64,000 bases of DNA from Candidatus Tumulicola sp. (GTDB taxonomy: Bacteria > Vulcanimicrobiota > Vulcanimicrobiia > Eremiobacterales > Eremiobacteraceae): NCBI GenBank assembly GCA_035601835.1, contig DATNNM010000012.1, forward strand, positions 62,001 through 126,000. Direction: 5' to 3'. Shown here one piece after another: positions 2,870 through 37,138 of the stretch. Both the position numbers and the translations under genes were made by a program. Position 1 is the first letter of the stretch, and each line of letters begins with the position of its first letter. The notes under the pieces were generated by a model. The model searched no databases. It was given only the letters and a program-made list of their open reading frames with translations, and was not told the DNA's origin.

Positions 2870-3255
2870 GCTTTGTCGTCCTCGCTGTGCTCGATCATGC
2901 GTTTGAGCCGCTGCAGCTCTTCTTGGTCGAGATTCTCACGCTCGAGCAGGCGCAATGCGAGCAGCCCGGGCGAGTTGTTGAAAAAGCGGCTCACCAGCAG
3001 CTCTGTTGCGCTGGCTTGAGCCTCCTCGCGTTCCACCAACGGGTGGTACACGTAGGCGCGCCCGGATTCTAAATGAGCGACGAAGCCCTTTTGCTCGAGG
3101 ATGCGCAGCGTCGTCAGCACGGTACTATACGCGAGCGCAGTTTCCCCGGGCAGCCCGGCCATGACTTCGCCGACGGTGGCCGACCGTTTCTCCCACAGCA
3201 CTTCCATGAGACGGAGTTCCGCCTCCGTAAGTGTTGGAGATCGTTTGCGCGCCAA
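2866..3255 (-). CDS. BlaI/MecI/CopY-family transcriptional repressor
   Basis: 129 residues, normal for the family. The N-terminal winged helix begins PTLTEAELRLMEVLWEKRSATVGEV, followed by ALAYSTVLTTLRILEQKGFV, the BlaI recognition-helix pattern. The C-terminal half (ASATELLVSRFFNNSPGLLAL) is the dimerisation arm where cognate M56 enzymes cut. The gene overlaps the M56 gene by 4 nt, forming a two-gene sensor/repressor unit. Candidate operators lie upstream at 3295-3374, consistent with autoregulation. The regulon is not evident from the window. Confidence 0.92.
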   Translation of the reverse strand: MARKRSPTLTEAELRLMEVLWEKRSATVGEVMAGLPGETALAYSTVLTTLRILEQKGFVAHLESGRAYVYHPLVEREEAQASATELLVSRFFNNSPGLLALRLLERENLDQEELQRLKRMIEHSEDDKA

Positions 3256-3269
3256 GAACGCCTCGTTTT

Positions 3270-3293
3270 CCGGGGTTAAAACCCCGGCACTAC
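3270..3293 (-). repeat. REP-like palindrome, type A, in the blaI-like leader
   Basis: Minus-strand GTAGTGCCGGGGTTTTAACCCCGG: GTAG head and a perfect stem with a TTTTAA centre. Unlike most copies it lies in the 5' leader of a gene, between the putative operators and the BlaI start codon. Confidence 0.7.
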
Positions 3294-3294
3294 A

Positions 3295-3374
3295 CCTACT
3301 AAGGAATTAATAGTTGGCGGTATCATACACCGGGTCGGCCCCAGTTGTCAATTAAGAAATTAATAGTTTGCCGG
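3295..3374 (-). promoter_or_regulatory. Candidate operator pair for the BlaI-type repressor
   Basis: This AT-rich patch in a GC-rich genome contains two similar sites 52 bp apart: GAATTAATAGTTGGCGG at 3304-3320 and GAAATTAATAGTTTGCCGG at 3356-3374. The first extends into an imperfect dyad ACTA...TAGT (3297-3313), and TACTA/TAGTA-type dyads are what BlaI-family repressors bind. Position upstream of the repressor gene supports autoregulation. Binding is inferred. Confidence 0.5.
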
Positions 3375-3378
3375 GCTC

Positions 3379-4023
3379 TTAGAGCGCCTGCTTCGCGACG
3401 TCAGCCAGCAACGGCCCTAAATGCGTCGTATCGTTGCGCCTGACCAGCCGCGTCTGTTGCCCCTCATAGTGGATCTCGGTGATGGCGCAGTTGTCGCTGC
3501 GGTCCTCGAAAAACCCCGCGACACCCTTGCCGGCCGCCTCAAGCGCCGCCAGGCGCACGATGACGTCGTGCGTCACCACCACGAGCGGCGACTCAAAGCG
3601 CGCCAGGTCGGAGCGGAAAGACTGCCAGCGCTCCAGGACGTCCTTCAGGCTCTCCCCGCCCGGGAACGTCACGCTTTCGGGCCGCGCTTTCCAATCGCGC
3701 AACATCTCGGGCCAGCGCCGCGCCACGTCGGAGGCAAGTTCGCCTTCCCACGCGCCGTGGTCGATCTCGACCAGCCGCGCATCGATCGCAAGGCTCAAGC
3801 CGCAGGCCTGCGCCGCGAATTGAGCCGTTTGACGGGCGCGCGACAGTGGGCTCGACGCGATCGCGCGCGGCCGCTCCTTTGTCGCGAGGGCAGCCGCCAG
3901 CGCCTGCGCCTGCAGTACTCCTAAATCCGATAAGGCAGAGTCGCGCCTGCCTTGATAACGGCCCTCGGCGTTCCACGTCGACTCGCCGTGGCGCACGAGC
4001 AGCAACGCGAAGGGCCGGCTCAA
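3379..4023 (-). CDS. Histidine phosphatase (dPGM-like), possible phosphoserine phosphatase
   Basis: 214 residues of the phosphoglycerate mutase-like histidine phosphatase superfamily. The catalytic LLVRHGESTWN is at residues 8-18, with the second-arginine region ASSPLSRARQT and the second catalytic histidine in VVTHDVIVRL. The translation start is TTG at 4023, overlapping the serA stop codon in TTGA. Coupling to serA suggests the cofactor-independent phosphoserine phosphatase role (iPSP, as in Hydrogenobacter PspA), which would complete serine synthesis with a transaminase found elsewhere. The alternative is a generic phosphatase such as a cobalamin-type enzyme. Family certain, substrate inferred. 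Confidence 0.8.
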   Translation of the reverse strand: MSRPFALLLVRHGESTWNAEGRYQGRRDSALSDLGVLQAQALAAALATKERPRAIASSPLSRARQTAQFAAQACGLSLAIDARLVEIDHGAWEGELASDVARRWPEMLRDWKARPESVTFPGGESLKDVLERWQSFRSDLARFESPLVVVTHDVIVRLAALEAAGKGVAGFFEDRSDNCAITEIHYEGQQTRLVRRNDTTHLGPLLADVAKQAL

Positions 4024-5612
4024 AGCTCGATCGCGCGCACGCTGTGCAGCTGGGCGACGTCGCGAAGTCGCGTGAGCACGTCGGCGGGCGCCGCACGATC
4101 CACGCCCAGTATCATCAGGGCCTGGCCGGTCTGTTCGCGCCGCGCGACGCTCATGTTCGAGATGTTGATGCCGGCTTCACCGAGGATCGTGCCGACCTTG
4201 CCGACGACGCCGGGCACGTCGCCGTGGTGCGTCAGAAGAAGATGACCTGCCAGGGCGACGTCAAGCTCGTAGCCGTCGATCTCGATGAGGCGCAACTGTT
4301 CGCCGTGAACCACCGTGCCGGCAAGCGCCGTTCGACCGCCGCGAACGAAGACGGCGCGAGCAAAACCTCGCTCGCACGGCGCCGGCAAAGCTTCGATCGA
4401 CAGACCCATCTCGCGCGCGACGTCGAACGCGTTGACCGTCGAGATGCGGCGATCGGTGATGTTCTGCAACAGCCCGACCAAAAACGCGGCGACGAACGGC
4501 GCCGTGTCGTGCGCGCCGAGTTCGCCTTCCATGAACAGCGCGAACGGCGGCAACGCAGACTCCTGCGCCAACTGTGGATACGCGCGGCCAAGCACGTAGC
4601 TGAGTTCGACGAAAGGGCGCAGTTCCGGAGCGGCGACGAACGGCGCATTCACGGCAGATGAGGGCGGTTTGCCGCGAAGCACCGCGACGACATCGCGGCA
4701 AAGATCCGTTGCGATGCGCGCTTGCGCTTCGCGCGTCGAGCCGCCCAAGTGCGGCGTCGCAAGCACGCGATCGTGATGAAGCAGCTTCCATACAGGATGA
4801 CCGGGCGGCGGCGGCTCGATGTCGACGACGTCGACTGCGGCGCCCGCCAGGCGGCCGGCTTCCAAAGCTGCAAGCAGCGCCTCGTGGTCGACGAGCCCGC
4901 CGCGCGCGCAATTGACCAATCGTGCTCCCGGCTTCATGAGCCCAAACGCTCGCGCGTCCATCATCGCTTGCGTCTGCGGTGTGAGCGGCGCGTGCAACGT
5001 CACAACGTCCGCGGCGCTGAGCAGCTCATCGAACGCGACCAAGCGCGCGCCCAATGATTCGGCGCGCGCCTGGCTGACAAACGCGTCGTGCGCGAGCACG
5101 GTCATGCCGAACGCACGCGCGCGGACGGCCACGGCCGAGCCGATGCGGCCGAGTCCGATAATGCCCAACGTCTTTCCCGCGAGTTCGCTGCCCGCAAGTC
5201 CCTTCGCGCTCCAAGCGCCCGACAGGACGCGCTGATGACCGGCGCTGAGGTGGCGGCACAGCGCCAGCAACATCGCGAAGGTGTGCTCCGCTGTGGCGAG
5301 CGTGCTGGCGTCGGGCGTGCTGAGCACGACGATGCCGTGACGCGTCGCGGCGGCGACGTCGATCGCATCGACTCCGACCCCGGCTCGGCCCACCACGCGC
5401 AACTGGGGAGCCGCGGCGAGCAGCTCCGCGTCGACCGCGGTCTTGCTGCGCACGATCAGCCCTTGGGCATCGCGCAGCAGTTCGATGAGCGCTTGGCGCG
5501 GCTGGTCATAGGCCTCGCGAACGTCCGCGCCGCCTTCTTGGAGGACGGCCACACCTTCCGCCGCGAGAGGTTCCGCGACGAGGACCGTGGGACGGACGCC
5601 AGAGTGTCGCAT
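4020..5612 (-). CDS. serA: D-3-phosphoglycerate dehydrogenase
   Basis: About 530 residues, the long SerA form. It oxidises 3-phosphoglycerate to 3-phosphohydroxypyruvate, the first committed step of serine synthesis. Visible are GRAGVGVDAIDV, the Rossmann motif GIIGLGRIGSAVA, NCARGGLVDHEAL and the ATPHLGGSTREAQ block with the catalytic histidine. An intervening ASB-like domain is followed by a C-terminal ACT domain (HHGDVPGVVGKVGTILGEAGINISNMSV), implying serine feedback. ATG at 5612 is chosen; a TTG three codons earlier is possible. The gene overlaps the downstream phosphatase by 4 nt. Confidence 0.95.
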   Translation of the reverse strand: MRHSGVRPTVLVAEPLAAEGVAVLQEGGADVREAYDQPRQALIELLRDAQGLIVRSKTAVDAELLAAAPQLRVVGRAGVGVDAIDVAAATRHGIVVLSTPDASTLATAEHTFAMLLALCRHLSAGHQRVLSGAWSAKGLAGSELAGKTLGIIGLGRIGSAVAVRARAFGMTVLAHDAFVSQARAESLGARLVAFDELLSAADVVTLHAPLTPQTQAMMDARAFGLMKPGARLVNCARGGLVDHEALLAALEAGRLAGAAVDVVDIEPPPPGHPVWKLLHHDRVLATPHLGGSTREAQARIATDLCRDVVAVLRGKPPSSAVNAPFVAAPELRPFVELSYVLGRAYPQLAQESALPPFALFMEGELGAHDTAPFVAAFLVGLLQNITDRRISTVNAFDVAREMGLSIEALPAPCERGFARAVFVRGGRTALAGTVVHGEQLRLIEIDGYELDVALAGHLLLTHHGDVPGVVGKVGTILGEAGINISNMSVARREQTGQALMILGVDRAAPADVLTRLRDVAQLHSVRAIEL

Positions 5613-5736
5613 GGCGACCAAGTGCGCGGGATTCGCGGGACCCTCCTGTGGAGCCGCAGCGGTCCAAGCGCGGCAGGTCCCCGGTCGGGCAGCGAGAACC
5701 CGAGGGGTCTCACCACTTTACTTTATGGAGAGTGCA

Positions 5737-6183
5737 ATGCGCATATCTGTCCTTTTGCTTGCCGTGGTCGTTGCGGCGACCCTGACGGCCTGCTCGAAGT
5801 CGAGCGACACCAGCACCACCACTTCGACGGCAACCGAGGCCGCCGCCACCACAGCGCCCGCAGGCGGCGCGATGTCGTCCACAACAGAGAAGACCGGCTT
5901 GCCGTCCTATCCCGGCGCGACCGAAGCCGCGGCCGGAACGTCGGCCAACGGCGCCATGGGCCAGGCCTCGGGCAAGGTCATGACGACCGCCGATTCGTTC
6001 GCCAAAGTGTACGCATGGTACCAGGGCAAGATGCCCAAGGGCTCCGAGAAGGCGCACATGACCGTCGCCGGCAACGAAATGGCGACCTTCCAGATCGGCA
6101 CGGCCGGGAAGAACCAGCAGGTCGTCACCATCACCGCGCAGGGCGGCAAGACGACGATCACGCTGGCCAGCGTCTCCAAGTAA
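5737..6183 (+). CDS. Small lipoprotein, paralogue of the gene at 35484
   Basis: 148 residues. A hydrophobic signal ends in the lipobox LTAC (Cys about residue 19), followed by a Ser/Thr/Ala-rich tether and a compact C-terminal domain. Motifs in that domain are TGLPSYPGA, DSFAKVYAWYQ and TTITLASVSK. The same motifs occur in the lipoprotein at 35484-36044. ATG at 5737 follows GGAG with 6 nt spacing. I do not recognise a named family; it is probably anchored in the periplasm. A clear terminator follows at 6218. Confidence 0.8.
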   Translation: MRISVLLLAVVVAATLTACSKSSDTSTTTSTATEAAATTAPAGGAMSSTTEKTGLPSYPGATEAAAGTSANGAMGQASGKVMTTADSFAKVYAWYQGKMPKGSEKAHMTVAGNEMATFQIGTAGKNQQVVTITAQGGKTTITLASVSK

Positions 6184-6184
6184 T

Positions 6185-6208
6185 GTAGTGCCGGGGCTTT
6201 AGCCCCGG
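6185..6208 (+). repeat. REP-like palindrome, type A
   Basis: GTAG head, then the perfect hairpin CCGGGGC-TTTA-GCCCCGG, starting 2 nt after the TAA stop of the lipoprotein gene. Confidence 0.8.
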
Positions 6209-6217
6209 GAGTGAAGA

Positions 6218-6242
6218 CGCCGGACTTAGGTCCGGCGTTTTT
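6218..6242 (+). terminator. Rho-independent terminator after the lipoprotein gene
   Basis: Perfect 8-bp stem CGCCGGAC/GTCCGGCG with loop TTAG, immediately followed by five T residues. The stem resembles the type B repeats. Confidence 0.85.
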
Positions 6243-6312
6243 GTTGGCCAAACGTCGATAGCGCGAGCCGCAACCATGTCGTACACTGTTGCGAAAATGG
6301 AGGGCCGCGCCG

Positions 6313-7563
<1,251 letters not shown>

Positions 7564-7572
7564 ATGTGGTAT

Positions 7573-7590
7573 GCCGGACTTTAGTCCGGC
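7573..7590. repeat. Type B-like palindrome between convergent genes
   Basis: Perfect palindrome GCCGGACTTTAGTCCGGC between the ends of amt (+) and the DUF3999-like gene (-). The tetranucleotide head is not well conserved here. It may act as a bidirectional terminator, although no T-run follows. Confidence 0.6.
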
Positions 7591-7594
7591 CGGG

Positions 7595-8833
7595 CTAGCG
7601 GCGTAGTGTCCGGATCGCCAGGCCGCCCATCACTAATACCGCGATTGCCAGCGCGATCCAAAGGATGACCGGATGCTGTTCGGTCCACGGAGCCGGATCG
7701 ACATACGCGGCGTTGGTCTGCTCAGCGCCGAGGTTGACCGTCGGCGCGGCGGAGCGCTCCGCGGCCGTCGTCAGGTCAGCGACGTCGTATTGCGGCGCCG
7801 TCGCCCGGTTGTCGCCGTAGAGCAGCCGGTACGTGCGGCCAGGTTCCTGCCGGAACGAAACGTGACGCGGTGAGGCGAGCAGCGTCGCAGAAAGTCCGGT
7901 GACGGGCGGGTCGTTGTGATTGAAGACGGTGATGCGCCAATACCGCCCGCCTCCTTCTTGAAACTCGATACGGCGTGCCGTCTGCGTTGAAGCTCCACTC
8001 GCGATCACGCCCTCGCCGATCTCCGTAAACGTGCCTGCGTCATCGCTGACGCTGATCCGCACCGGGCGGTGGTATTCCACCTGTTGAGCGTCGATCTCGA
8101 CCACTGCGCCGGGCAGCCGCGGGGCGCCGGCGTCGGCCTCGAGCCAGGTCTGCTGCGTGTCCTCCTTCGGGTTCTCTTTGAAGGCAAGCGGCCACGGCGC
8201 AAGCTCTGCTGGTCTTACCTGCCGGTAGCCCACCAAGATGTCATCGATGGGGAATGCCGCATCGGGTTCGAGCACCCGCACTCGGAGCCAACGGGCGCGC
8301 GTCGCCGGAAACGACACGGTTTGCGTGCCGGCGAGCGCGTCGCGCCGGAATTTGAAGATAGGCGCTTGCTCCCTGATGACGCGCCAGGAGGTCTCGTCGT
8401 CGCTGGCGGCGATCTCGACCCAGCTGAAATAATTCGCGTTCGACGAGTCGATCCTGAGGGTGTCTATAAGTTCCTTGCGCCCCTCGCCAGTATCCGCAAC
8501 GACTTGCGTGTAAGAGCCGCGCACGAACCCATACTCGCTCTGCGGCGCCTCGCGCAACCCGCCGACCTGACTGCCGCGTTCGATGTCGATCACATACGGG
8601 ATCTCACGCCCCGTGTCGTCGATGATGCGAAGATCCGGAAGGCCTGCTTGCGAGCGGCGAAAAGCCGTCATGGGCACGGTGACGCGTACCATGCGGCGCA
8701 GCGTTATGACGCCTACCTCAATCGGCGCGGAATAGAGCCAGTACTTCCACTGATCAGGGAGCGCGGTCATCGATTCGGCGGATGCGCCGGGGCCCTGAAG
8801 CAGAAGCGCGGCGAGTGCGATCGATGCAATCAT
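7595..8833 (-). CDS. DUF3999-like exported protein
   Basis: 412 residues. A cleavable signal (MIASIALAALLLQGPGASA) is followed by an extracytoplasmic beta-rich region with repeated jelly-roll-like segments (DTLRIDSSNANYFSWVEI, RRIEFQEGGGRYWRITV) and a single C-terminal helix (VILWIALAIAVLVMGGLAI) before RTLRR. Layout and pairing match DUF3999, whose genes commonly follow DUF2339 genes. ATG at 8833 overlaps the DUF2339 stop by 4 nt. The function of the pair is not established; a joint cell-envelope or glycan role is a guess from the carbohydrate-binding-like segments. Confidence 0.75.
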   Translation of the reverse strand: MIASIALAALLLQGPGASAESMTALPDQWKYWLYSAPIEVGVITLRRMVRVTVPMTAFRRSQAGLPDLRIIDDTGREIPYVIDIERGSQVGGLREAPQSEYGFVRGSYTQVVADTGEGRKELIDTLRIDSSNANYFSWVEIAASDDETSWRVIREQAPIFKFRRDALAGTQTVSFPATRARWLRVRVLEPDAAFPIDDILVGYRQVRPAELAPWPLAFKENPKEDTQQTWLEADAGAPRLPGAVVEIDAQQVEYHRPVRISVSDDAGTFTEIGEGVIASGASTQTARRIEFQEGGGRYWRITVFNHNDPPVTGLSATLLASPRHVSFRQEPGRTYRLLYGDNRATAPQYDVADLTTAAERSAAPTVNLGAEQTNAAYVDPAPWTEQHPVILWIALAIAVLVMGGLAIRTLRR

Positions 8834-28144: not shown

Positions 28145-28627
28145 GTGACGGTAGCTCCTGCAAAAGTGCTCAAGCGGCTTCGCATCAACGGCGAGGCGAT
28201 CGAGTGCGCGTTCAACCCAAACAAGACGCTGCTCGAAGTGCTGCGCGAAGACGTCGGGCTGACCGGCACCAAGCACGGCTGCGAGATGGGGCACTGCGGC
28301 GCATGCTGTGTGTTGATCGACGAGGAGCCGATTCTATCGTGCCTAGCCCTCGCCGTTGAAAGCGAGGGCCACGAGATCCGCACGGTCGAGGGGCTCGCGC
28401 ATAACGGCACGCTGCATCCGATCCAGCAGGCGTTCGTCGAGTGCGGCGCGGCGCAGTGCGGCTACTGCACGCCCGGCTTTCTCATGGCGGGCGCTGCGCT
28501 CGTGGAGAAAAAGCAAGACCTGACCGACGACGAGATCCGCCAAGCCATCTCCGGCAATCTGTGCCGCTGCACCGGTTACACCAAGATCGTCGAGGCCATC
28601 GCATTGGCCGCGGGCAGGATGCGATGA
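28145..28627 (+). CDS. 4-hydroxybenzoyl-CoA reductase-like gamma subunit, [2Fe-2S]
   Basis: 160 residues from GTG 28145. The two cluster motifs are TKHGCEMGHCGACCVLID (about 43-60) and QCGYCTPGF with [12 protein letters not shown]. The GCEMGHCGAC form is typical of aryl-CoA/aromatic molybdenum hydroxylases and differs from the CoxS at 14562. The stop overlaps the alpha-subunit start (ATGA). The FAD subunit with a diagnostic 4Fe insert is at 36137, supporting an HcrABC-type enzyme. Confidence 0.85.
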   Translation: MTVAPAKVLKRLRINGEAIECAFNPNKTLLEVLREDVGLTGTKHGCEMGHCGACCVLIDEEPILSCLALAVESEGHEIRTVEGLAHNGTLHPIQQAFVECGAAQCGYCTPGFLMAGAALVEKKQDLTDDEIRQAISGNLCRCTGYTKIVEAIALAAGRMR

Positions 28628-31071
28628 ACGACGACGTGCGCGCCGTTTCCACCGCGACCAATCCCGACGGCGACGCGCGGGCCATCACGCCCGCCAGCGA
28701 GACGTCGAGCATCGTCGCTCGAGCTCCGCAGAGGCCCAAAGATAAACCCGAGGGTTTTCACGTCGTCGGCAAAGCGCTTCCCAAACTCGATGCGTACGCG
28801 CGCGTGACGGGCGAGGACAAATTCGCGGACGACATCTTCCTGCCGCAGATGCTCTACGGGAAAATGCTGCGCAGCGTGCACGCGCACGCGCGCATCACGC
28901 GCGTCGATGCGAGCAAAGCGCTCAAGCTGCCTGGCGTGGTCGCCGTCGCGACCGGACAGGACCTGCCGGTGCGCTACGGCATCTTGCCCTCCAGCCCGGA
29001 CGAAACGGTCATGGCGACCGACCGCGTGCGTTACGTCGGCGATCCGATCGCCTGCGTGGTGGCCGACGACGAGCTCACCGCGGAAGAGGCGCTCGAACTC
29101 ATCGACGTCGAGTACGAGCCATTGCCCGCGATCATGTCGATCGAGCAAGGGCTGCGCGACGACCTGCCGCAGATCCATCCCAATCCGCGGCGCACGAACA
29201 ACGTGCACAAAGAAGTGCATCTCGAATTCGGAGACGTCGAAGGCGGCTTCGCGCAAGCAGACCATATCTTTGAGGACGAATATTTCTTCGAGGGCAACAC
29301 GCACGCGCCGATCGAGCAGCACGCTGTCGTGGCGCAGTACGGCGCCGACGGCAAGCTGACGTTCTGGTGCTCCACGCAAACGCCGCACTACCTCCACCGC
29401 ATCGCGGCGGCGGTGTTGCAACTCCCCGGCAGTCACGTGCGGGTGATCGCGCCGCCGGTCGGCGGCGGTTTCGGCGGCAAGACCGAGCCGTTCGCGCATG
29501 AGCTCGCCGCCGGCTACCTGGCGATGAAGACGGGCCGGCCGGTCAAGATCGCGCTGACGCGCCAAGAAGTCTTCTATGCGCATCGCGGCCGGCATCCGGT
29601 GAAGTTCAAGCTCAAGACCGGCGTGCGCAAGGACGGCACGATCACCGCGATCCATCTCCAGTCCTGGCTCGACGGCGGAGGGTATGGGTCGTACGGCGTG
29701 GCGACCACGTACTACACCGGGGCCTTGACGACGGTCACGTACAAGATCCCCGCGTACAAATTCGACGGCTGCCGGGTGTTCACGAACAAGCCGCCGTGCG
29801 GACCCAAGCGCGGGCATGGTACTACGCAGCCGCGCTTCGCGCTCGAAGCGCAACTCGACAAGATCGCCGCGGCGCTCAAGCTGGATCCGGCCGAGTATCG
29901 CAAGCGCATCGCGGTCGATCCTTACACCACCACCGTCAACGGACTGCGCGTGACCTCGTGCGGCCTCAAACAGTGCATCGACGCGGCGGTGGAGCGCACG
30001 GGGTTCAAGCAGAAACGAGGCAGGTTGCCTTCAGGCAAGGGCATCGGCCTGGCCGCGAGTTCGTACCTGTGCGGCGCCGGCTTGCCGGTGTACTGGAACG
30101 CCATGCCGCAGTCGGCTGCGATCGTCAAAGTTGATCGCGGCGGCGGCGTGACCATTCTGGCCGGCACAAGCGAATGCGGACAAGGCTCGACGCACATGCT
30201 GGGTTCGATCGTCGCGGAGACGCTGGGCGTCGATATCATGGACGTGCGCGTGTGCTACGGCGACACCGATCTCACGCCCGTCGATCTGGGCTCGTATTCA
30301 AGTCGCGTGACGTTCATGGCGGGCAACGCAGCGCGCCAAGCGTGCGAAGCGGCGCGCAAGCAGATCGCCGAGGCTGCCGCCGAGAAACTTGGAATCCCGG
30401 TCGAACGGATCGCGCTGGCGAACCGTCGCGCCTTCGACATCGACGATCCGGCAAAGCAGCTGACCTTCATCGACGCCGCGCAGGCCGCCGAGGCGAAGTT
30501 CGGCACGATCGTCGGCGTCGGTTCGTACGCGCCGCCCCGCTTGGCAGCGGAATACAAGGGCTCAGGCGTCGGGCCGTCGCCTGCGTACTCGTATAGCGTG
30601 TGCGTGGCGGAAGTCGACGTCGATCTCGACACCGGCGAGATCAAGGTGGAGAAGCTCACGCTGGCTCACGACGTCGGACGCGCGCTCAACCCCGATTCGG
30701 TCGAAGGGCAGATCGAGGGCGGCGTGTACATGGGACTGGGCGAAGCGCTCTACGAGGAGTGGCCTTTCCGCGCCGGCGAGCACAAGATCCCCAATCTGCT
30801 CGACTACAAAACGCCGACCAGCCTCGACACGCCGCCGATCGAAGCGCTCATCATCGAAACCGACGACAAAGAGGGGCCGTTCGGCGCCAAAGAAGCGGGC
30901 CAGGGGCCGCTCAACCCGGTGATCCCCGCGATCGCTAACGCGGTGGCTGACGCCATCAAGGCGCGCATCTATTCAACGCCGATCACGCCGGAGAAAGTGC
31001 TCAAGGCGCTGGACGCTTCGACGGGCGCCACGCTCAAGTTGCGAAAGGTCCCGACGCCCGCCCGCGCCTGA
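28624..31071 (+). CDS. 4-hydroxybenzoyl-CoA reductase-like alpha subunit, molybdopterin-binding
   Basis: 815 residues. After a Ser/Ala/Thr-rich N-terminal extension of about 45 residues the molybdenum-hydroxylase fold begins (FHVVGKALPKLDAYARVTG). Cofactor motifs are GGGFGGKTEP, GPKRGHGTTQPRFALE at the active-site loop, and FGAKEAGQGPLNPVIPAIANAV, whose glutamate aligns with the catalytic one. The loop lacks both AYRCSFR and AYRGAGR, so this is not CoxL. HBCR enzymes reductively remove a para-hydroxyl from 4-hydroxybenzoyl-CoA; the actual substrate here is inferred. Confidence 0.85.
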   Translation: MNDDVRAVSTATNPDGDARAITPASETSSIVARAPQRPKDKPEGFHVVGKALPKLDAYARVTGEDKFADDIFLPQMLYGKMLRSVHAHARITRVDASKALKLPGVVAVATGQDLPVRYGILPSSPDETVMATDRVRYVGDPIACVVADDELTAEEALELIDVEYEPLPAIMSIEQGLRDDLPQIHPNPRRTNNVHKEVHLEFGDVEGGFAQADHIFEDEYFFEGNTHAPIEQHAVVAQYGADGKLTFWCSTQTPHYLHRIAAAVLQLPGSHVRVIAPPVGGGFGGKTEPFAHELAAGYLAMKTGRPVKIALTRQEVFYAHRGRHPVKFKLKTGVRKDGTITAIHLQSWLDGGGYGSYGVATTYYTGALTTVTYKIPAYKFDGCRVFTNKPPCGPKRGHGTTQPRFALEAQLDKIAAALKLDPAEYRKRIAVDPYTTTVNGLRVTSCGLKQCIDAAVERTGFKQKRGRLPSGKGIGLAASSYLCGAGLPVYWNAMPQSAAIVKVDRGGGVTILAGTSECGQGSTHMLGSIVAETLGVDIMDVRVCYGDTDLTPVDLGSYSSRVTFMAGNAARQACEAARKQIAEAAAEKLGIPVERIALANRRAFDIDDPAKQLTFIDAAQAAEAKFGTIVGVGSYAPPRLAAEYKGSGVGPSPAYSYSVCVAEVDVDLDTGEIKVEKLTLAHDVGRALNPDSVEGQIEGGVYMGLGEALYEEWPFRAGEHKIPNLLDYKTPTSLDTPPIEALIIETDDKEGPFGAKEAGQGPLNPVIPAIANAVADAIKARIYSTPITPEKVLKALDASTGATLKLRKVPTPARA

Positions 31072-31087
31072 AGCCTAAAGGAGCATC

Positions 31088-31567
31088 GTGGGAACAGTTG
31101 CGGTGAAGAAGATCAATCACGCGGTCCTCAAAGTCCGCAGTCTTGACCGTTCGGTCAAATTCTATCGCGACGTCTTCGGCCTCGAAGAGATCGCGCGCGC
31201 CGGAGGCCAAATGGCGTTCATGCGGGCCGCGGGGTCGGCCAACCATCACGATCTCGGGTTTCTGGAGCTTGGGCCGCGCGCGACCGAGCCGCCGCCCAGC
31301 GCCGTCGGCCTCTTCCACATCGCGTGGGAGGTGCCGTACATCGAAGATCTGCTCTCCGTGCGCGATGTGCTGACCAAGCTCGGCGCGCTTGAAGGCGCAA
31401 GCGACCATGGCGCGACCAAATCGCTGTATGGCAAAGATCCGGACGGCAACGAGTTCGAGGTCATGTGGCTCGTGCCGCGCGAGCAGTGGGGCGACCACGA
31501 GAAAAGCGCGCCGACGAGGCCGCTCGACCTCGAAGCAGAAGTTCGCCGCTTCGGCAAAGCTCTTTAG
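31088..31567 (+). CDS. VOC-superfamily protein, extradiol dioxygenase/glyoxalase-like
   Basis: 159 residues from GTG 31088, with AAGGAG upstream and 16 bp after the alpha subunit, so probably in its operon. Two betaalphabeta-beta-beta modules show candidate metal ligands in KINHAVLKV, LFHIAWEV and NEFEVMWLV (His-His-Glu). Single-domain members include catechol 2,3-dioxygenase-like and glyoxalase-like enzymes. Context with an aromatic molybdenum enzyme favours a role in aromatic or ring-derived metabolite breakdown. It ends tail-to-tail, overlapping the regulator gene by 3 nt. Confidence 0.78.
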   Translation: MGTVAVKKINHAVLKVRSLDRSVKFYRDVFGLEEIARAGGQMAFMRAAGSANHHDLGFLELGPRATEPPPSAVGLFHIAWEVPYIEDLLSVRDVLTKLGALEGASDHGATKSLYGKDPDGNEFEVMWLVPREQWGDHEKSAPTRPLDLEAEVRRFGKAL

Positions 31568-34380
31568 GAGTCCAGTACTTTCATTTTCGCGACCAACTCG
31601 CTGCGCGAAACGAGCTGCAATTTGCTCAGGATCGAAGAAACGTGACTCTCGACCGTCCGCTCGCTGATGACCAACGCTTGCGCGACCGCTCGGTTCGACT
31701 TGCCGCCGGCGATGAGTTTTGAGATCTCGAGTTCGCGTGAGGTCAGCGCATTGGGCGCGCGCCCACGCCGGTTGACCGGCGCAAGCACCGTCTCAAGGCG
31801 CCGCGCGTCGTGCAGATCTCCTATGTGGCGGTAGATGTCGAGCGCTTCCGGCAGGCGATCGGCGAGTTCGAGCGCCTGCGCTTCATGATACGGCCAGCGC
31901 AATTCGCGGAATAGCTCCGCGGCCTCGAGCGCCTCTATCTGCGCACCCTCCTTGTGGATGCGCGTGGAAGCAAAAGCCTCGAAGAGCGCGATAAAGGCCG
32001 GCACCGAGCGAGCCGCGGTGATTTCCGACGATTTTCGGAGAAACTCCCTGGCTCGCGGTATGTCCGCAAGGTCGCCGTATTTGGCGACCGAGAGGAAGAG
32101 GAGATCCGCGTCACCCGGCGCGGGCAAGACCTCGAGCGTGCGGAGCGCTTCAATGGCTTCGTGCAATAGTTTTCGGGCGGCATCGTCGCGCCCGGCAGCC
32201 ATCTCGTGCTCGACGAATGTGGCCACGCACGCGATGGAGTACGCCCCGCTCGAGCGCAGCGCGAAGGCGACGAGATCGGCGCCGGCGCAGCGCTGGACGA
32301 GATCGGCGTCATCGAGGAGCAGCCCCAAGAGGACGCCTGCCGCCGCGAGGCGGAGGCGAAAGCTCGCCATGTCGATGTTGGCGGAGAGCGCTTGCTCGAT
32401 GAGCTCGCGGCCTCTTTCCAGCTCGCCGTGCATCACGCAGGCATAGGCGAATTCCACCACGCTCCAACTCGCGGTGAGGCCGCGGAATTGTTTCACGCGG
32501 GCCGTTTCGAGCGCGCGTTCGAAGGCCTCGACCGCAAGCCGTCGCTCGCCGGTCTGTGCCATGCTGATCCCGAAGTTGGCCCAACACCGGATCGTGCCTT
32601 GAAGGTCTCCGGCGTGCTCGCTGATGCCGGCCGCGTGCGTCACGTCGTCGAGCGCGTCGGAAGGCCGCCCAAGCTGCGCATGCAGCGCCGAGCGATATTC
32701 GAAGAAGCGGAACAACGCTCTGGGGCCTGCGGCTTCCTTGAGCTCTTCCGCCTTGGCCAGATGCTCGAGAGCCTTCTGGCCCGACCAGTGAGAGCCGATG
32801 TAGTATCGCGCCATTTCGACGTGGGCGCTGAAAAGCGAATGCTTGGAAGGCAGGCTCTCGGCGACGCTCAAGGCGCGCAACGTCATCGCACGATGGCCCG
32901 CGAAATCCGCGAGCGCGTCGCATAGCCGCGCCAAGCTGAGGCAGGCGCTTGCGACCTCCTGCTGGTCGCCGACGGATTCATAGTAATCAAGCGCGGACTC
33001 GAGGGCCGCTCGGGCTCGATCGCCGAAACCGCATCGTTTTAGCGCTCGCGCGAGCTTGCGGTACAGCCTCGCGCGCGATGCGCCGTCAAGCGCCTCGGAT
33101 TCGAGCGCCCGCTCGTAGTTGGCCACGCTGTCGTGATAGGCATAGAGCGAGAACGCGCGGTCACCGGCGCGCTCGTTCGACTGCGCCGATTTCTCGGGAT
33201 CGCGCGCTTGCCACCAGTGATATGCCAATTCCGCGATACGGTCGTCGGCAGCGCCCGCATCTTCGAGCGCCGTCGCGATGCGCCGATGCAGCGGTCGCGC
33301 CTCTGCCGCCAAGAGCTCGTCGTAGACGGCATCGCGGATGAGTGCGTGCCGAAATCCATAGTGGATGGCGCCATCCGCTTTTTCGACGACCAACTGCAAG
33401 TCCAGCGCCTTGCGCAACGTCGGGGTCACGCTCTCCAGCGTCAGGTCGAGCGTCTTCGCCAAGAACTCGGCCCCGAATTCTCGTCCGATGGCGGCGGCGC
33501 ACGAGAGTATCGATCGCTCCGATGCGTCGAAATGCGCCAAACGTTCAAGCGCCGCCTCGCGCAGCGTCGGCGGAAGCTCGATCTGCTTGGCGCCGCGACT
33601 ATCGAGCGCGCTCTTGAGCAGCTCTTCCGCGAAGAGCGGATTGCCTTCCGACCTCGAGCGGATCGCGTCCACCGTCGCCGTCGGCAACGGCGCATGGCCC
33701 TCGAGCGCATGGAAGATGAACATCTGCATGTCGGGATCGCTCAGTGGTTCGAGTTTGATCTGCCATATGTACGGGAGGCGCGAGAGCCGCGCGAGCACAT
33801 GCCGAAGCGGATGCCCGCGCGACAACTCGTCTTGGCGGTACGTGCCGACCACCAGCAGCGGCGAGGCTGCGATGGCGCGAACCAGGTGTTGAAGGAATCG
33901 CAAGGTCGCGTCGTCGCCCCACTGAAGGTCGCCGAGCACGACAACGGTCGCTTTCCTGGCGGCGAAGCGGCGAAAGACTTCCGTCAGCGCATCGAACTGT
34001 CTCAGCTCATCGCGCTGTGCCGCTTCGGATTTCTTGACGAGTTCGGGCGTCAGTCCGGCAAGCGCCGCATCGGAATCCTCGATCGAGGGGATGACGCTCG
34101 GGTCCTCGGCGTGTAAAGCACGCACGAGGGAAACGAACGGGGCAAACGGCGAGCGTACGTAATCGTAACAGTCGCTTTCAGCAAAGCGCGCGTCAAGCGT
34201 CTTGGCTCTGGCGCCGAACTCCGCGATCAGCCGGCTCTTGCCGGACCCCGCGTCGCCCCCTACAAGCACGAGGGAGCCTTGCCCCGACAGCGCCGCCTTG
34301 CACCGCTCGAGGAGCAGCTCGAGCTGTTCGCGCCGGTCGACAAAGCGCCCGCAGTACACCGGCCTGGCACTCATCACCAT
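31564..34380 (-). CDS. LuxR-family regulator with AAA ATPase and TPR-like domain (LAL type)
   Basis: 938 residues. N-terminal ATPase: FVDRREQLELLLERC, Walker A GGDAGSGKSR (41-50), Walker B VVVLGDLQWGDD. A long helical tetratricopeptide-like region (about 400-850) follows. The C-terminal LuxR helix-turn-helix reads LTSRELEISKLIAGGKSNRAVAQALVISERTVESHV split at the turn. These large ATP-binding regulators sense small ligands or proteins. It is 24 bp downstream of the borosin methyltransferase on the same strand, making it a candidate regulator of that operon or of the HBCR-like genes. Confidence 0.9.
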   Translation of the reverse strand: MVMSARPVYCGRFVDRREQLELLLERCKAALSGQGSLVLVGGDAGSGKSRLIAEFGARAKTLDARFAESDCYDYVRSPFAPFVSLVRALHAEDPSVIPSIEDSDAALAGLTPELVKKSEAAQRDELRQFDALTEVFRRFAARKATVVVLGDLQWGDDATLRFLQHLVRAIAASPLLVVGTYRQDELSRGHPLRHVLARLSRLPYIWQIKLEPLSDPDMQMFIFHALEGHAPLPTATVDAIRSRSEGNPLFAEELLKSALDSRGAKQIELPPTLREAALERLAHFDASERSILSCAAAIGREFGAEFLAKTLDLTLESVTPTLRKALDLQLVVEKADGAIHYGFRHALIRDAVYDELLAAEARPLHRRIATALEDAGAADDRIAELAYHWWQARDPEKSAQSNERAGDRAFSLYAYHDSVANYERALESEALDGASRARLYRKLARALKRCGFGDRARAALESALDYYESVGDQQEVASACLSLARLCDALADFAGHRAMTLRALSVAESLPSKHSLFSAHVEMARYYIGSHWSGQKALEHLAKAEELKEAAGPRALFRFFEYRSALHAQLGRPSDALDDVTHAAGISEHAGDLQGTIRCWANFGISMAQTGERRLAVEAFERALETARVKQFRGLTASWSVVEFAYACVMHGELERGRELIEQALSANIDMASFRLRLAAAGVLLGLLLDDADLVQRCAGADLVAFALRSSGAYSIACVATFVEHEMAAGRDDAARKLLHEAIEALRTLEVLPAPGDADLLFLSVAKYGDLADIPRAREFLRKSSEITAARSVPAFIALFEAFASTRIHKEGAQIEALEAAELFRELRWPYHEAQALELADRLPEALDIYRHIGDLHDARRLETVLAPVNRRGRAPNALTSRELEISKLIAGGKSNRAVAQALVISERTVESHVSSILSKLQLVSRSELVAKMKVLDS

Positions 34381-34404
34381 GGCACTTCGACTCGCATCGG
34401 TGGC

Positions 34405-35193
34405 CTACTTTTGGGCCCGCGACTCCGCGCTCAGACCCAAGCGTTCTAGCATCGCGTCGTCAAGCGGCGCGGGGCCTTTGGGCGGAACGAACATGGTGGA
34501 CGTGGCCAGAATGCGGGCCCGGGACGCTTTTGACAGCGGAAGGCGTTGGATAACGGCGTCGCATACCGGAAACCGCGCTGCTTCATAGATCACGATTTCG
34601 TGGTCGGGTCCATACGTCGCCTCGAGCACCTCGAGCAACACCTGATAGCCTTTGAGTGCGTAGACGTCTTGATGCGTGAAATCACCGGTCAACCCGATTT
34701 GGAGCAAGACGAGTGCCGTGCACGGATCGAAGACGCGCCGTCGCGCCAGAAAGTCGGTGGCTTCGTAGCACTGACAGCCGTTCGTGCCCGGATCGATCCC
34801 GAGATCGGCGTAGAGACAGTCAATCGCGGAAATCGCCGGCAGCATCGTGGCAGGAAAGCCCTCGCCCCGGGCGAGGCGCATGGCTTCGTGAGTCGGATAC
34901 GCGAAGATGCCGGGGTGACCGTACGTCACGACGCAAACGTCCATGCCCGCCCGCACGAAGTTCATGATGCGTTCCACCATCTCGTTGTAGATATCGATGC
35001 GGGGTTTGTCCAGCGCATAGAGCCCGTGCAGCGATTCTGCTGCGGGGTTGAGCTCGTCGATCCATGCTGCGGTTGCCTGATCTCCCGCGAGGTGGAGGAC
35101 CTTGTCGGCCGCGGCGATGGAGCGGCGCGCGCCCATGGAGGCATGGGCGCCGAACTGGATGCCGACGCCGACGCAGGTCAGCGAGCCTGGCAC
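34405..35193 (-). CDS. Borosin-type peptide backbone N-methyltransferase
   Basis: 262 residues of the tetrapyrrole-methylase fold. Key blocks are GSLTCVGVGI, KVLHLAGDQ, LNPAAESL, VCVVTYGHPGIF and TMLPAISAIDCLYADLGIDPG. The residues Y59, R65, Y69 and Y91 have exactly the spacing (6, 4, 22) of catalytic Tyr66, Arg72, Tyr76, Tyr98 in the fungal borosin enzyme OphMA. GCQCYEATDF follows as in split borosin enzymes. The start is GTG 35193, directly abutting the TAA of the precursor gene, so translation is coupled. It would methylate amide nitrogens of the 80-residue neighbour using S-adenosylmethionine. Tetrapyrrole substrates are unlikely given the context. Confidence 0.85.
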   Translation of the reverse strand: MPGSLTCVGVGIQFGAHASMGARRSIAAADKVLHLAGDQATAAWIDELNPAAESLHGLYALDKPRIDIYNEMVERIMNFVRAGMDVCVVTYGHPGIFAYPTHEAMRLARGEGFPATMLPAISAIDCLYADLGIDPGTNGCQCYEATDFLARRRVFDPCTALVLLQIGLTGDFTHQDVYALKGYQVLLEVLEATYGPDHEIVIYEAARFPVCDAVIQRLPLSKASRARILATSTMFVPPKGPAPLDDAMLERLGLSAESRAQK

Positions 35194-35436
35194 TTACTTG
35201 AGTCTATCGATCAACGCTTTGAGAGTGAGCTCGATGTGACCGAATTGCACCGTCGAGCCGTGCTCGACATTGAGCGCGGCTTGGATGTGCGCCTGGTCTT
35301 TGCTCTTGAGCGCATCTCCCTGCGCCTTGGTCAACCCCGCCGAAGCGACGCACGCATCGGGATCCTTTTTGAACCGCGCGAGTTCCGCATCGTCTTTGTG
35401 CAGCTTGACCAGATAGTCCGTGAACGGCTTGGCCAT
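35194..35436 (-). CDS. Split-borosin precursor peptide with borosin-binding (LigA-like) domain
   Basis: 80 residues. Residues 1-55 match the small helical borosin-binding domain: AELARFKKDPDACVASAGL then TKAQGDALKSKDQAHI. This fold resembles the LigA subunit of protocatechuate dioxygenase, but no LigB gene is near. The C-terminal tail, about residues 56-80 (STVQFGHIELTLKAL...), is the candidate substrate region; it is more polar and charged at the end than fungal cores. GGGAGG lies upstream of ATG 35436. No protease gene lies next to it. Order precursor-methyltransferase matches known bacterial split borosin pairs. Confidence 0.8.
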   Translation of the reverse strand: MAKPFTDYLVKLHKDDAELARFKKDPDACVASAGLTKAQGDALKSKDQAHIQAALNVEHGSTVQFGHIELTLKALIDRLK

Positions 35437-35483
35437 GATCGCCCTCCCCCTAGAGGCGGACGGGCAAGCTAGTCGCTTGCTCG

Positions 35484-36044
35484 TTACTTGGTCGACGATG
35501 CCAGCGTGATCGTCGTCTTGTCTTTGGTGCCCGCCACCATGACGCTCTTGGTGGTCGAGCCCTGTTCCAGTTGGAATGTCGCAACCGAGCCGTCAGCAGT
35601 GTCCATTTTCGCGCGCTGCCAGTCCGCGGGGATCTGGCTTTGATACCAGGCGTACACCTTGTCGAAGGAGTCCGTCGTGACCATCACGGTCGCCGCTCCG
35701 CTGTTGTCGGCGCCGCTGATGCTCGTGTCTTGCTTCGCGCCGGGATACATGGGCAGGCCGGTCTTGTCGGAGCCGGTCACGTAAGCGCCTTCGGTCGATT
35801 GCGCCGTTGCTTGCGCGGAGGCGCTGGCCGCCGGTTCGGGCGACGCGACCTCCCCGACCGGCGACCCTGAAGACTCAGGGCCTGGAAAAGCTTGACTCGT
35901 GCTCGCCGGCGCGACGCTGGCCGCGGGCGTTGCGTTGCTTGCGACCTCGCTTTTCTTCGCGCAACCCGCAGCGATGACAAGCGCAGCAGCCAAGGCCGCC
36001 CCTGCAAACGCGGACGCTGACGGAATGGATAACCGTAGGTTCAT
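35484..36044 (-). CDS. Small lipoprotein upstream of the borosin precursor, paralogue of 5737
   Basis: 186 residues from ATG 36044, preceded by AGGAGAGG. Signal ends in lipobox IAAGC. A Ala/Ser/Pro-rich tether of about 90 residues precedes the conserved domain, with TGLPMYPGA, DSFDKVYAWYQ and TTITLASSTK shared with the lipoprotein at 5737. It lies 47 bp upstream of the borosin precursor on the same strand, so it may be part of that operon, or only upstream of it. Function unknown. Confidence 0.8.
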   Translation of the reverse strand: MNLRLSIPSASAFAGAALAAALVIAAGCAKKSEVASNATPAASVAPASTSQAFPGPESSGSPVGEVASPEPAASASAQATAQSTEGAYVTGSDKTGLPMYPGAKQDTSISGADNSGAATVMVTTDSFDKVYAWYQSQIPADWQRAKMDTADGSVATFQLEQGSTTKSVMVAGTKDKTTITLASSTK

Positions 36045-36136
36045 GAACCCTCTCCTGACGTGCGGCAATGCTTCGGTCATGGCCGGTGTGCGCCTGCCGG
36101 ATGAGTTCCTCGCGCGCGGCGAGAAGGCGTGCGACG

Positions 36137-37138
36137 ATGTTGCGCCTCCCGCCATTTCGCTACGAGCCCGCCTCGAGCGTCGCCGCGGCGGTGTCCCTGC
36201 TCGCGCAGTACGGGCCGGACGCCCTCCCCGTCTCGGGCGGCACTGACCTGTACGCCAACATGAAGCAGCGGCTGTTCACCCCCAAGGTGCTGGTCGGACT
36301 GCGCCCGATCAACGAGTTGAGATTCATCCGCTACAACGAAGTCACCGGCCTGACGCTGGGGGCGCTCGCCACCCTCACCGACATCGCCGAGAGCGCCGTG
36401 GTCAGGAAGTACTATCCAGCGCTCGCGCAAGCAGCCGCGCTGATCTCGACACCGCAATTGCGGAACATGGGAACGATCGGCGGCAACGTGTGCGTGGACA
36501 CCCGCTGCAACTATTACAATCAGAACCTCGATTGGCGCAAAGCGCTCGGCTATTGCATGAAAAAAGACGGCGATATCTGCCGCGTCGCGACGAGCAGCCG
36601 CCTGTGCTTGGCCGTCAACTCATCCGACACCGCGCCGGTGCTGCAAGCCTTCGCAGGCATGGTGACGTTGTGCGGTCCCGACGGCGAGCGGGAAGTGTCG
36701 ATCGCGGACTTCTACGTGAACGACGGCATCAACGCGTGGGCGAAGCAGCCAGGCGAGATCGTCACCGGCGTGACCGTGCCGCCTCCGGCTCCCCATACGC
36801 GGAGCGCTTATCGCAAGCTGCGGCTGCGCAACTCGTTCGACTTTCCGATCCTTGGCGTCGCGCTGGTGGTGCGGCTCGATGATGCCGGCGTGTGCCGCGA
36901 CGCGCGTATGGTCATCAATGCGGTGGCGTCGAAGCCCGTGGCGGTGCCCGCCGTCGCGCAGTGCCTGATCGGCAGCACGTTGGAGAAAGAAGCGCTGGAA
37001 GCCGCGGCAGACGCCGCGTTCGCCGCCGGCAAGCCGCTCGACAACACGAGCGCCACCATCCCGTATCGCAAACGCATGGTGCGGGTCTTCGCGCGCCGTG
37101 CCCTCGAAGACGTCGCTACCGGATATCCCCGCGCGTGA
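36137..37138 (+). CDS. 4-hydroxybenzoyl-CoA reductase-like beta subunit with [4Fe-4S] insert
   Basis: 333 residues. FAD-binding motifs are PVSGGTDLYANMKQR and LRNMGTIGGNVCVDTR. Cysteines at 124, 140, 148 and 157 have spacing 16, 8 and 9, identical to the four that bind the extra [4Fe-4S] cluster in HBCR beta of Thauera (C122, C138, C146, C155). No other xanthine-oxidase-family FAD subunit has this insert. ATG 36137 follows GAGAAGG. It is 5 kb from its presumed alpha and gamma partners, separated by the borosin operon, and is divergent from the lipoprotein. Confidence 0.88.
   Translation: MLRLPPFRYEPASSVAAAVSLLAQYGPDALPVSGGTDLYANMKQRLFTPKVLVGLRPINELRFIRYNEVTGLTLGALATLTDIAESAVVRKYYPALAQAAALISTPQLRNMGTIGGNVCVDTRCNYYNQNLDWRKALGYCMKKDGDICRVATSSRLCLAVNSSDTAPVLQAFAGMVTLCGPDGEREVSIADFYVNDGINAWAKQPGEIVTGVTVPPPAPHTRSAYRKLRLRNSFDFPILGVALVVRLDDAGVCRDARMVINAVASKPVAVPAVAQCLIGSTLEKEALEAAADAAFAAGKPLDNTSATIPYRKRMVRVFARRALEDVATGYPRA

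What the first reader, a model, noticed from the sequence alone, without database searches (positions are those of the whole stretch)
34405..36044. Split-borosin RiPP operon with lipoprotein and large LuxR regulator
An 80-residue protein with the small helical borosin-binding domain abuts, with zero intergenic bases (TAA|GTG), a tetrapyrrole-methylase-fold enzyme. Y59/R65/Y69/Y91 of that enzyme have the exact spacing of the OphMA catalytic set. A lipoprotein gene lies 47 bp upstream and a 938-residue ATPase/LuxR regulator 24 bp downstream, all on one strand. The precursor tail is short and partly charged (KALIDRLK end), unlike hydrophobic fungal cores, and no protease is present. The product may be a methylated small protein rather than a released peptide.
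Basis: partly seen in the sequence, partly recalled or inferred. Interest (0 to 1): 0.85.

Follow-up and report, generated by a model that had tools for sequence, protein, structure and literature searches.

The report
Split borosin peptide pathway beside regulator
A bacterium of the phylum Eremiobacterota carries a small-protein-and-methyltransferase pair of a known kind (a split borosin, which adds methyl groups to a peptide's backbone), and it sits, as in all its family relatives that have the pair, directly beside a very large ATP-driven regulator gene, which suggests that the peptide belongs to a regulated or signalling circuit.

Summary
34405-35193(-) encodes a borosin alpha-N-methyltransferase: its only significant PDB relatives are SonM (E 9e-56) and the fungal OphMA/MroMA enzymes. 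35194-35436(-) encodes a precursor with a five-helix borosin-binding domain (BBD) and a ~20-residue tail. Stop and start codons abut (TAAGTG). The genome has no LigB, so this is not LigAB. Corrections: the catalytic spacing is not OphMA's (Y59-R65 is 6 residues, not 9); the lipoprotein is not conserved at related loci and should be dropped; the 938-aa STAND-ATPase/LuxR gene belongs to the unit, lying 5-34 bp behind the methyltransferase in all five family members that have the enzyme (40-44% identity). This is a new member of a known kind (type IV split borosin). The wider pattern is more interesting: of 19 Eremiobacterota borosin loci, 12 adjoin a STAND ATPase (LuxR, XRE or cyclase output) and 6 a PDZ-membrane-GAF protein; STAND genes also lie near borosin loci in cyanobacteria, actinobacteria, myxobacteria and an archaeal MAG. 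One 99%-complete genome keeps a BBD gene 19 bp behind a STAND cyclase without any intact methyltransferase. Methylation, product and signalling role are inferred, not shown.

The parts
35194..35436 (-). Borosin-type precursor: BBD leader (residues 1-59, 35260-35436) plus C-terminal tail GSTVQFGHIELTLKALIDRLK (residues 60-80, 35197-35259)
   Evidence: BBD-family profile matches SonA at E 2.3e-16 and the OphMA clasp at E ~1e-6; AlphaFold2 model with five helices H4-14, 16-24, 26-32, 37-45, 48-59, pLDDT 86; the 50 best Foldseek rows listed are all SonA or fungal borosin proteins; strong Shine-Dalgarno GGGGGAGGG at 35442-35450
34405..35193 (-). Borosin alpha-N-methyltransferase (SonM-like), GTG start abutting the precursor stop codon
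   Evidence: phmmer best hit SonM 7ltc E 9e-56; all significant PDB hits are borosin enzymes; Pfam TP_methylase E 1e-16; Foldseek top 50 all borosin enzymes; Y59/R65/Y69 invariant, Y91 in 16 of 18 homologues
31564..34380 (-). STAND-type ATPase / LuxR regulator (AAA_16 residues 12-178, TPR region, GerE HTH 878-931), 24 bp downstream
   Evidence: Pfam; TIGR03903 TOMM kinase/cyclase STAND part E 7.5e-41, far below its cut-off; same position and strand in all five family members that have the methyltransferase, 40-44% identity, gaps 5-34 bp
35484..36044 (-). Lipoprotein 47 bp upstream; adjacent but probably not part of the conserved unit
   Evidence: lipobox; no homologue at any other borosin locus; two paralogues in this genome and C-terminal-domain homologues in 13 of 14 family genomes, none at a borosin locus

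Best explanation
It is a type IV split borosin RiPP pathway under, or serving, a neighbouring STAND-ATPase transcription regulator. The 80-aa precursor is made from a strong ribosome-binding site, and the methyltransferase is translated by coupling at TAAGTG (inferred). The five-helix BBD of the precursor (shown by profile and model) docks on the methyltransferase (inferred from SonM-SonA). The C-terminal tail is threaded through the active site (Y59, R65, Y69, Y91), and backbone amides are methylated with SAM from N to C, most likely near V63/F65, the positions closest to SonA L63/I65 (inferred). The 938-aa ATPase/LuxR protein is a MalT-like switch (domains shown): a ligand and ATP promote its oligomerisation, and its C-terminal HTH activates the operon or other targets (inferred from the STAND/MalT class). 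Its gene is kept directly behind the methyltransferase throughout the family (shown), so the product is probably made in response to, or itself contributes to, the signal that the STAND protein reads (inferred). Any final cleavage or export would use genes elsewhere.
For: Enzyme: (SonM E 9e-56, borosin-only hits). Precursor. A BBD ORF was found at 82 of 92 borosin loci; in nearly all intact Eremiobacterota loci it lies directly upstream of the enzyme (fused to the enzyme in L037). Unit: BBD-MT-STAND-LuxR in all five methyltransferase-bearing family genomes, with ten STAND-LuxR paralogue loci without BBD or MT as a control. Among 117 class genomes, profile BBD hits occur only in genomes with the methyltransferase, except G075 and a true LigA-type dioxygenase in G077. 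Tails diverge clearly more than BBDs in four of six pairs.
Against: No methylation, product or regulon was or could be tested. The single-sequence match of the precursor to SonA is weak (E 0.12), and the BBD assignment rests on a profile built from linked genes. The window's tail is an outlier within its family and is predicted helical. No exporter or protease is adjacent. Regulator linkage by itself does not show that the regulator controls or senses the product. The methyltransferase model has a poorly placed domain arrangement (TM 0.49, rmsd 17 A), so only its sequence-driven ranking counts.
Confidence: 0.78

Rival explanations
1. The BBD protein, methylated or not, is itself a ligand or partner of the STAND ATPase: a peptide-signalling or self-sensing module in which backbone methylation tunes binding, not a secreted natural product.
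For: 12 of 19 Eremiobacterota borosin loci adjoin a STAND protein with one of three different output domains (LuxR, XRE, adenylate cyclase), and 6 adjoin a PDZ-8TM-GAF membrane protein. The LuxR-type STANDs of the two families are separate clades. G075 keeps a BBD gene 19 bp behind a STAND cyclase with no intact methyltransferase in a 99%-complete genome. In cyanobacteria the BBD gene directly precedes a kinase-STAND gene.
Against: Many borosin loci (Xanthomonadaceae, Acidobacteria, others) show no STAND gene within 8 kb. Biosynthetic clusters often carry regulators. Cyanobacteria and Myxobacteria have many kinase-STANDs (from memory). TOMM clusters are also accompanied by a large kinase (PMC2887384), so the link may only be regulatory.
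Confidence: 0.25
2. A methylated small protein: the tail is methylated but never released, and the 80-aa protein acts intact.
For: No protease or exporter at the window's locus. The tail is short, charged and predicted helical. No final product was known for any split borosin in the paper that described them (PMC8429565).
Against: Tails vary more than BBDs between most relatives (26% against 45%, 22% against 36%, 24% against 39%), as expected for a core. RiPP proteases are often encoded elsewhere.
Confidence: 0.2
3. An ordinary tetrapyrrole (cobalamin/siroheme) methylase beside a stray LigA subunit of a dioxygenase.
For: Pfam names alone: TP_methylase for the enzyme and a sub-threshold LigA match for the precursor.
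Against: PDB hits are borosin enzymes only. NCBIfam cobalamin models match far below their cut-offs. No LigB in the genome.
Confidence: 0.01

Closest known systems
SonM-SonA, type IV split borosin of Shewanella oneidensis (PMC8429565)
   Same: Separate ~262-aa methyltransferase and ~75-80-aa BBD precursor in adjacent genes; conserved Tyr/Arg/Tyr/Tyr set; five-helix BBD; short C-terminal tail
   Different: Three residues fewer between the first Tyr and the Arg; unrelated, more charged tail; a STAND-LuxR gene directly downstream (whether Shewanella has one near was not checked)
OphMA / dbOphMA / MroMA fungal borosins
   Same: Same enzyme fold and the same BBD-like clasp domain
   Different: There enzyme, clasp and core are one protein; here the enzyme is separate
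TOMM/NHLP clusters with a large kinase, and NCBIfam TIGR03903 kinase/cyclase fusions
   Same: A RiPP-type leader gene beside a big STAND-type signalling protein (PMC2887384; TIGR03903 match to the STAND part)
   Different: Different modification enzyme; LuxR output and no kinase here; match far below the model's cut-off
Mycobacterial IniR / IniB-Rv0340
   Same: IniR is a signal-transduction ATPase that regulates iniBAC (PMC5760070); the IniB N-terminal domain model matches 35 of 52 BBDs, best E 1.2e-9, the window's at 1.8e-6
   Different: The window's match is below the model's cut-off (27.8 against 40 bits); IniR matches the window's regulator essentially in the HTH only; no borosin methyltransferase is known there (from memory)

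Membership tests
Type IV split borosin | alpha-N-methyltransferase homologous to SonM/OphMA | tested here: met
   E 9e-56 to SonM, E about 1e-46 to OphMA, no non-borosin PDB hit of significance
Type IV split borosin | Catalytic Tyr/Arg/Tyr/Tyr set (SonM Y58, R67, Y71, Y93) | tested here: met
   Y59, R65, Y69, Y91; residues conserved, first gap 6 instead of 9
Type IV split borosin | Separately encoded precursor with a BBD leader | tested here: met
   profile E 2e-16 to SonA, five-helix model, Foldseek hits SonA/OphMA with prob up to 1.00 although E-values are above 0.1 for so small a domain
Type IV split borosin | Backbone N-methylation of the precursor tail | not testable with these tools
   needs co-expression and mass spectrometry
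LigAB extradiol dioxygenase | LigB catalytic subunit present | tested here: not met
   no PF02900 match in the 97.9%-complete genome; positive controls ring
Cobalamin/siroheme tetrapyrrole methylases | Score above the curated cut-off of an equivalog model | tested here: not met
   best cobalamin model 20 bits against a cut-off of 163
STAND / MalT-like LuxR regulators | AAA/NTPase domain, TPR sensor region, C-terminal LuxR HTH | tested here: met
   AAA_16 E 1e-22, GerE E 6e-15, TPR_12 E 6e-6, the last just under its cut-off
STAND / MalT-like LuxR regulators | Ligand- and ATP-dependent activation | not testable with these tools
   biochemistry needed

The most novel reading that the evidence does not exclude
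BBD proteins are partners of STAND ATPases: across several phyla split borosin pathways form a module 'BBD protein + STAND switch' with exchangeable outputs (LuxR, XRE, cyclase, kinase), the methyltransferase tunes the peptide, and the pair can outlive the methyltransferase (G075); the mycobacterial IniB/IniR pair may be a distant version of the same module.
Probability: 0.25. Interest if true: 0.7.

Novelty: new member of a known kind. Interest (0 to 1): 0.45.

Why it matters
[quoted passage not shown] A conserved three-gene unit with a dedicated regulator gives a handle: find what switches the regulator on and one may find what the peptide is for. If the STAND link holds across phyla, bacterial borosins would be better seen as signalling peptides or internal ligands than as orphan natural products.

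Tried and rejected
(1) Viral origin: no relative in IMG/VR or phages; sparse, diverged plasmid hits only. (2) Defence system: only HTH-level PADLOC matches. (3) Lipoprotein as a system part: rejected. (4) The neighbour genes of the second Eremiobacterota family first looked like proteases because of a PDZ match; no peptidase domain was found, they have about 8 hydrophobic segments and weak GAF matches, i.e. membrane sensors. They are a multi-copy family, but the borosin-linked ones are mutually 58-65% identical and the rest at most 40%. (5) TAL-effector hits in the BBD profile search are a repeat artefact, with no stretch significant alone. (6) BBD beside STAND-LuxR paralogues without a methyltransferase in the same family: none at ten loci. 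(7) Fold search with the methyltransferase model: ranking fine, superposition poor, so no weight put on TM-scores. (9) Two key surveys of bacterial split borosins (Imani 2022, Cho 2022) are not held in the library; no held paper names borosin and LuxR together.

Full report
What is there. On the minus strand lie, in order of transcription, a lipoprotein gene (36044-35484), an 80-aa ORF (35436-35194), a 262-aa ORF (35193-34405) and a 938-aa ORF (34380-31564), with gaps of 47, 0 and 24 bp. The 80-aa ORF has a strong Shine-Dalgarno (GGGGGAGGG); the 262-aa ORF starts at a GTG that abuts the TAA, so translational coupling is likely (inference). The genome is 2.57 Mb, 97.9% complete; record titles of related loci show that its class belongs to Candidatus Eremiobacterota.

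The enzyme. phmmer against the PDB gives SonM at E 9e-56, then dbOphMA, MroMA and OphMA at about 1e-46 to 1e-51, and nothing else below 0.6. Cobalamin models score an order of magnitude under their cut-offs. The catalytic residues of SonM (Y58, R67, Y71, Y93; PMC8429565) correspond to Y59, R65, Y69 and Y91; the first three are invariant in 18 class homologues and the fourth is changed in only two. The claimed exact OphMA spacing is wrong: the first Tyr and the Arg are six residues apart, not nine, as in the class relatives.

The precursor. Alone, it matches SonA at only E 0.12 and Pfam LigA under the cut-off. Together with BBD sequences from other borosin loci it forms a family whose profile matches SonA at E 2e-16, the clasp of fungal borosins at 3e-7 to 9e-7 and the LigA-type domain of gallate dioxygenase at 9e-6 (the TAL-effector rows are a repeat artefact). 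The AlphaFold2 model has the five helices expected of a BBD plus a sixth in the tail, and the best 50 fold matches are all SonA or fungal borosins (E-values are above 0.1 because the domain is tiny). PMC8429565 describes the BBD as a five-helix bundle and reports that an unmethylated SonA core can be helical. The genome has no LigB. By ungapped numbering SonA L63/I65 fall next to V63 and F65 here; that these are the methylated residues is a guess.

Relatives. 17 further genomes of 117 in the class carry the enzyme or a piece of it, and nearly all have a BBD ORF directly upstream; in L037 BBD and enzyme are fused in one ORF. G104 (L040) has a decayed copy. A profile search of the same 117 genomes finds the BBD only where the enzyme is, apart from G075 and a true LigA-type dioxygenase in G077. 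Beyond the class, a scan of GTDB genomes gave at least 583 loci in many phyla, and a BBD ORF could be found at 82 of 92 loci examined. Tails diverge clearly more than BBDs in four of six pairs (for example 24% against 39% for the window and its nearest relative), which fits a RiPP core. Bacterial split borosins are a known kind (PMC8429565; types listed in PMC11395268); the larger surveys cited there are not held in the library, so I could not check whether this phylum or its regulators had been noted.

The regulator. The 938-aa protein is an AAA_16 STAND ATPase with a TPR region and a C-terminal LuxR HTH. A homologue of 40-44% identity lies 5-34 bp behind the methyltransferase, on the same strand, in all five family members that have the enzyme (WIN, L023, L032, L034, L035), while flanking genes mostly differ. 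In the other family of the class the neighbour changes but its kind does not: LuxR-type STAND, divergent (L026, L038, L039; a separate clade), XRE-type STAND (L024, L040), cyclase-type STAND (L025, L027), or a PDZ/8-TM/GAF membrane protein (L028-L031, L033, L036). Only L037, at a contig end, shows none. G061's two strongest AAA_16 genes lie at its two borosin loci. From counts of strong AAA_16 genes about 0.05 adjacencies are expected over these loci and 8 are seen; counting related loci once leaves three (P about 2e-5 under a simple Poisson). These counts were read by eye from a truncated list and genes per genome were approximated, so this is an order-of-magnitude estimate. The PDZ/GAF family is multi-copy and is weaker evidence.

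Beyond the phylum, a STAND gene lies within about 5 kb of the enzyme in Solirubrobacter (L077), three actinobacterial MAGs (L083, L086, L112), a Gemmatimonadota MAG (L102), two Sorangium strains (L071, L088), an archaeal MAG (L068) and most cyanobacteria, where the BBD gene directly precedes a kinase-STAND gene. About two thirds of the 92 loci, including the Xanthomonadaceae, show none in the flanks read. In G075 (99% complete) a BBD ORF lies 19 bp behind a STAND cyclase with no methyltransferase in the remaining 340 bp of contig and only a decayed one elsewhere, itself beside a STAND-LuxR gene.

Mechanism. Shown: homology, domain make-up, gene order, conservation. Inferred: docking, tail methylation, coupling, regulation. 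The simplest account is a split borosin pathway with its own MalT-like regulator. The bolder one, that the BBD protein and STAND protein work together, is not excluded, and G075 favours it, but a single genome with a contig break is thin evidence.

Verdict. The finding is sound, the system is a new member of a known kind, the lipoprotein should be dropped, and the regulator link is the part worth following.

Noticed in passing
window 28621-37138: The borosin cassette (31564-36044, minus) and a glyoxalase-family gene (31088-31567, plus) separate a molybdenum-hydroxylase large subunit (28621-31071, plus) from its FAD subunit (36140-37138, plus) by 5.07 kb; in six family genomes without the borosin enzyme the two are only about 24-120 bp apart. 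In G006 and G008 the cassette also lies within 2-6 kb of the large subunit.
   Followed up: partly
L157 (G075:C128) 2671-5757: STAND adenylate cyclase followed after 19 bp by a BBD protein, with no methyltransferase in the 340 bp left on the contig and no intact one in a 99%-complete genome.
   Followed up: partly
L158 (G075:C145) about 3390-7618: Decayed borosin locus: BBD remnant, N- and C-terminal fragments of the methyltransferase with the middle missing, then a gene that reads like an HNH nuclease and an intact STAND-LuxR gene.
   Followed up: partly
BBD family alignment A2: 35 of 52 BBDs match the NCBIfam model of the mycobacterial IniB N-terminal domain (best E 1.2e-9); iniBAC is regulated by the signal-transduction ATPase IniR (PMC5760070). 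Possible remote kinship of the two modules.
   Followed up: partly
L032 (G007), oriented -2910 to -2551 from the methyltransferase start: A second BBD ORF in the same neighbourhood whose tail shares the pattern NLSGIQ/GLSGIT with the main precursor.
   Followed up: no
L040 (G104:C1 near 3360000): BBD start joined in frame to the C-terminal half of the methyltransferase: a deletion remnant.
   Followed up: no
L041-L060, L072 (cyanobacteria): Precursors with proline/aspartate tails (DPGPDPLPDPDPFP...) several kb from the methyltransferase, with two genes between (TPR-like by eye), directly before a kinase-STAND gene.
   Followed up: no
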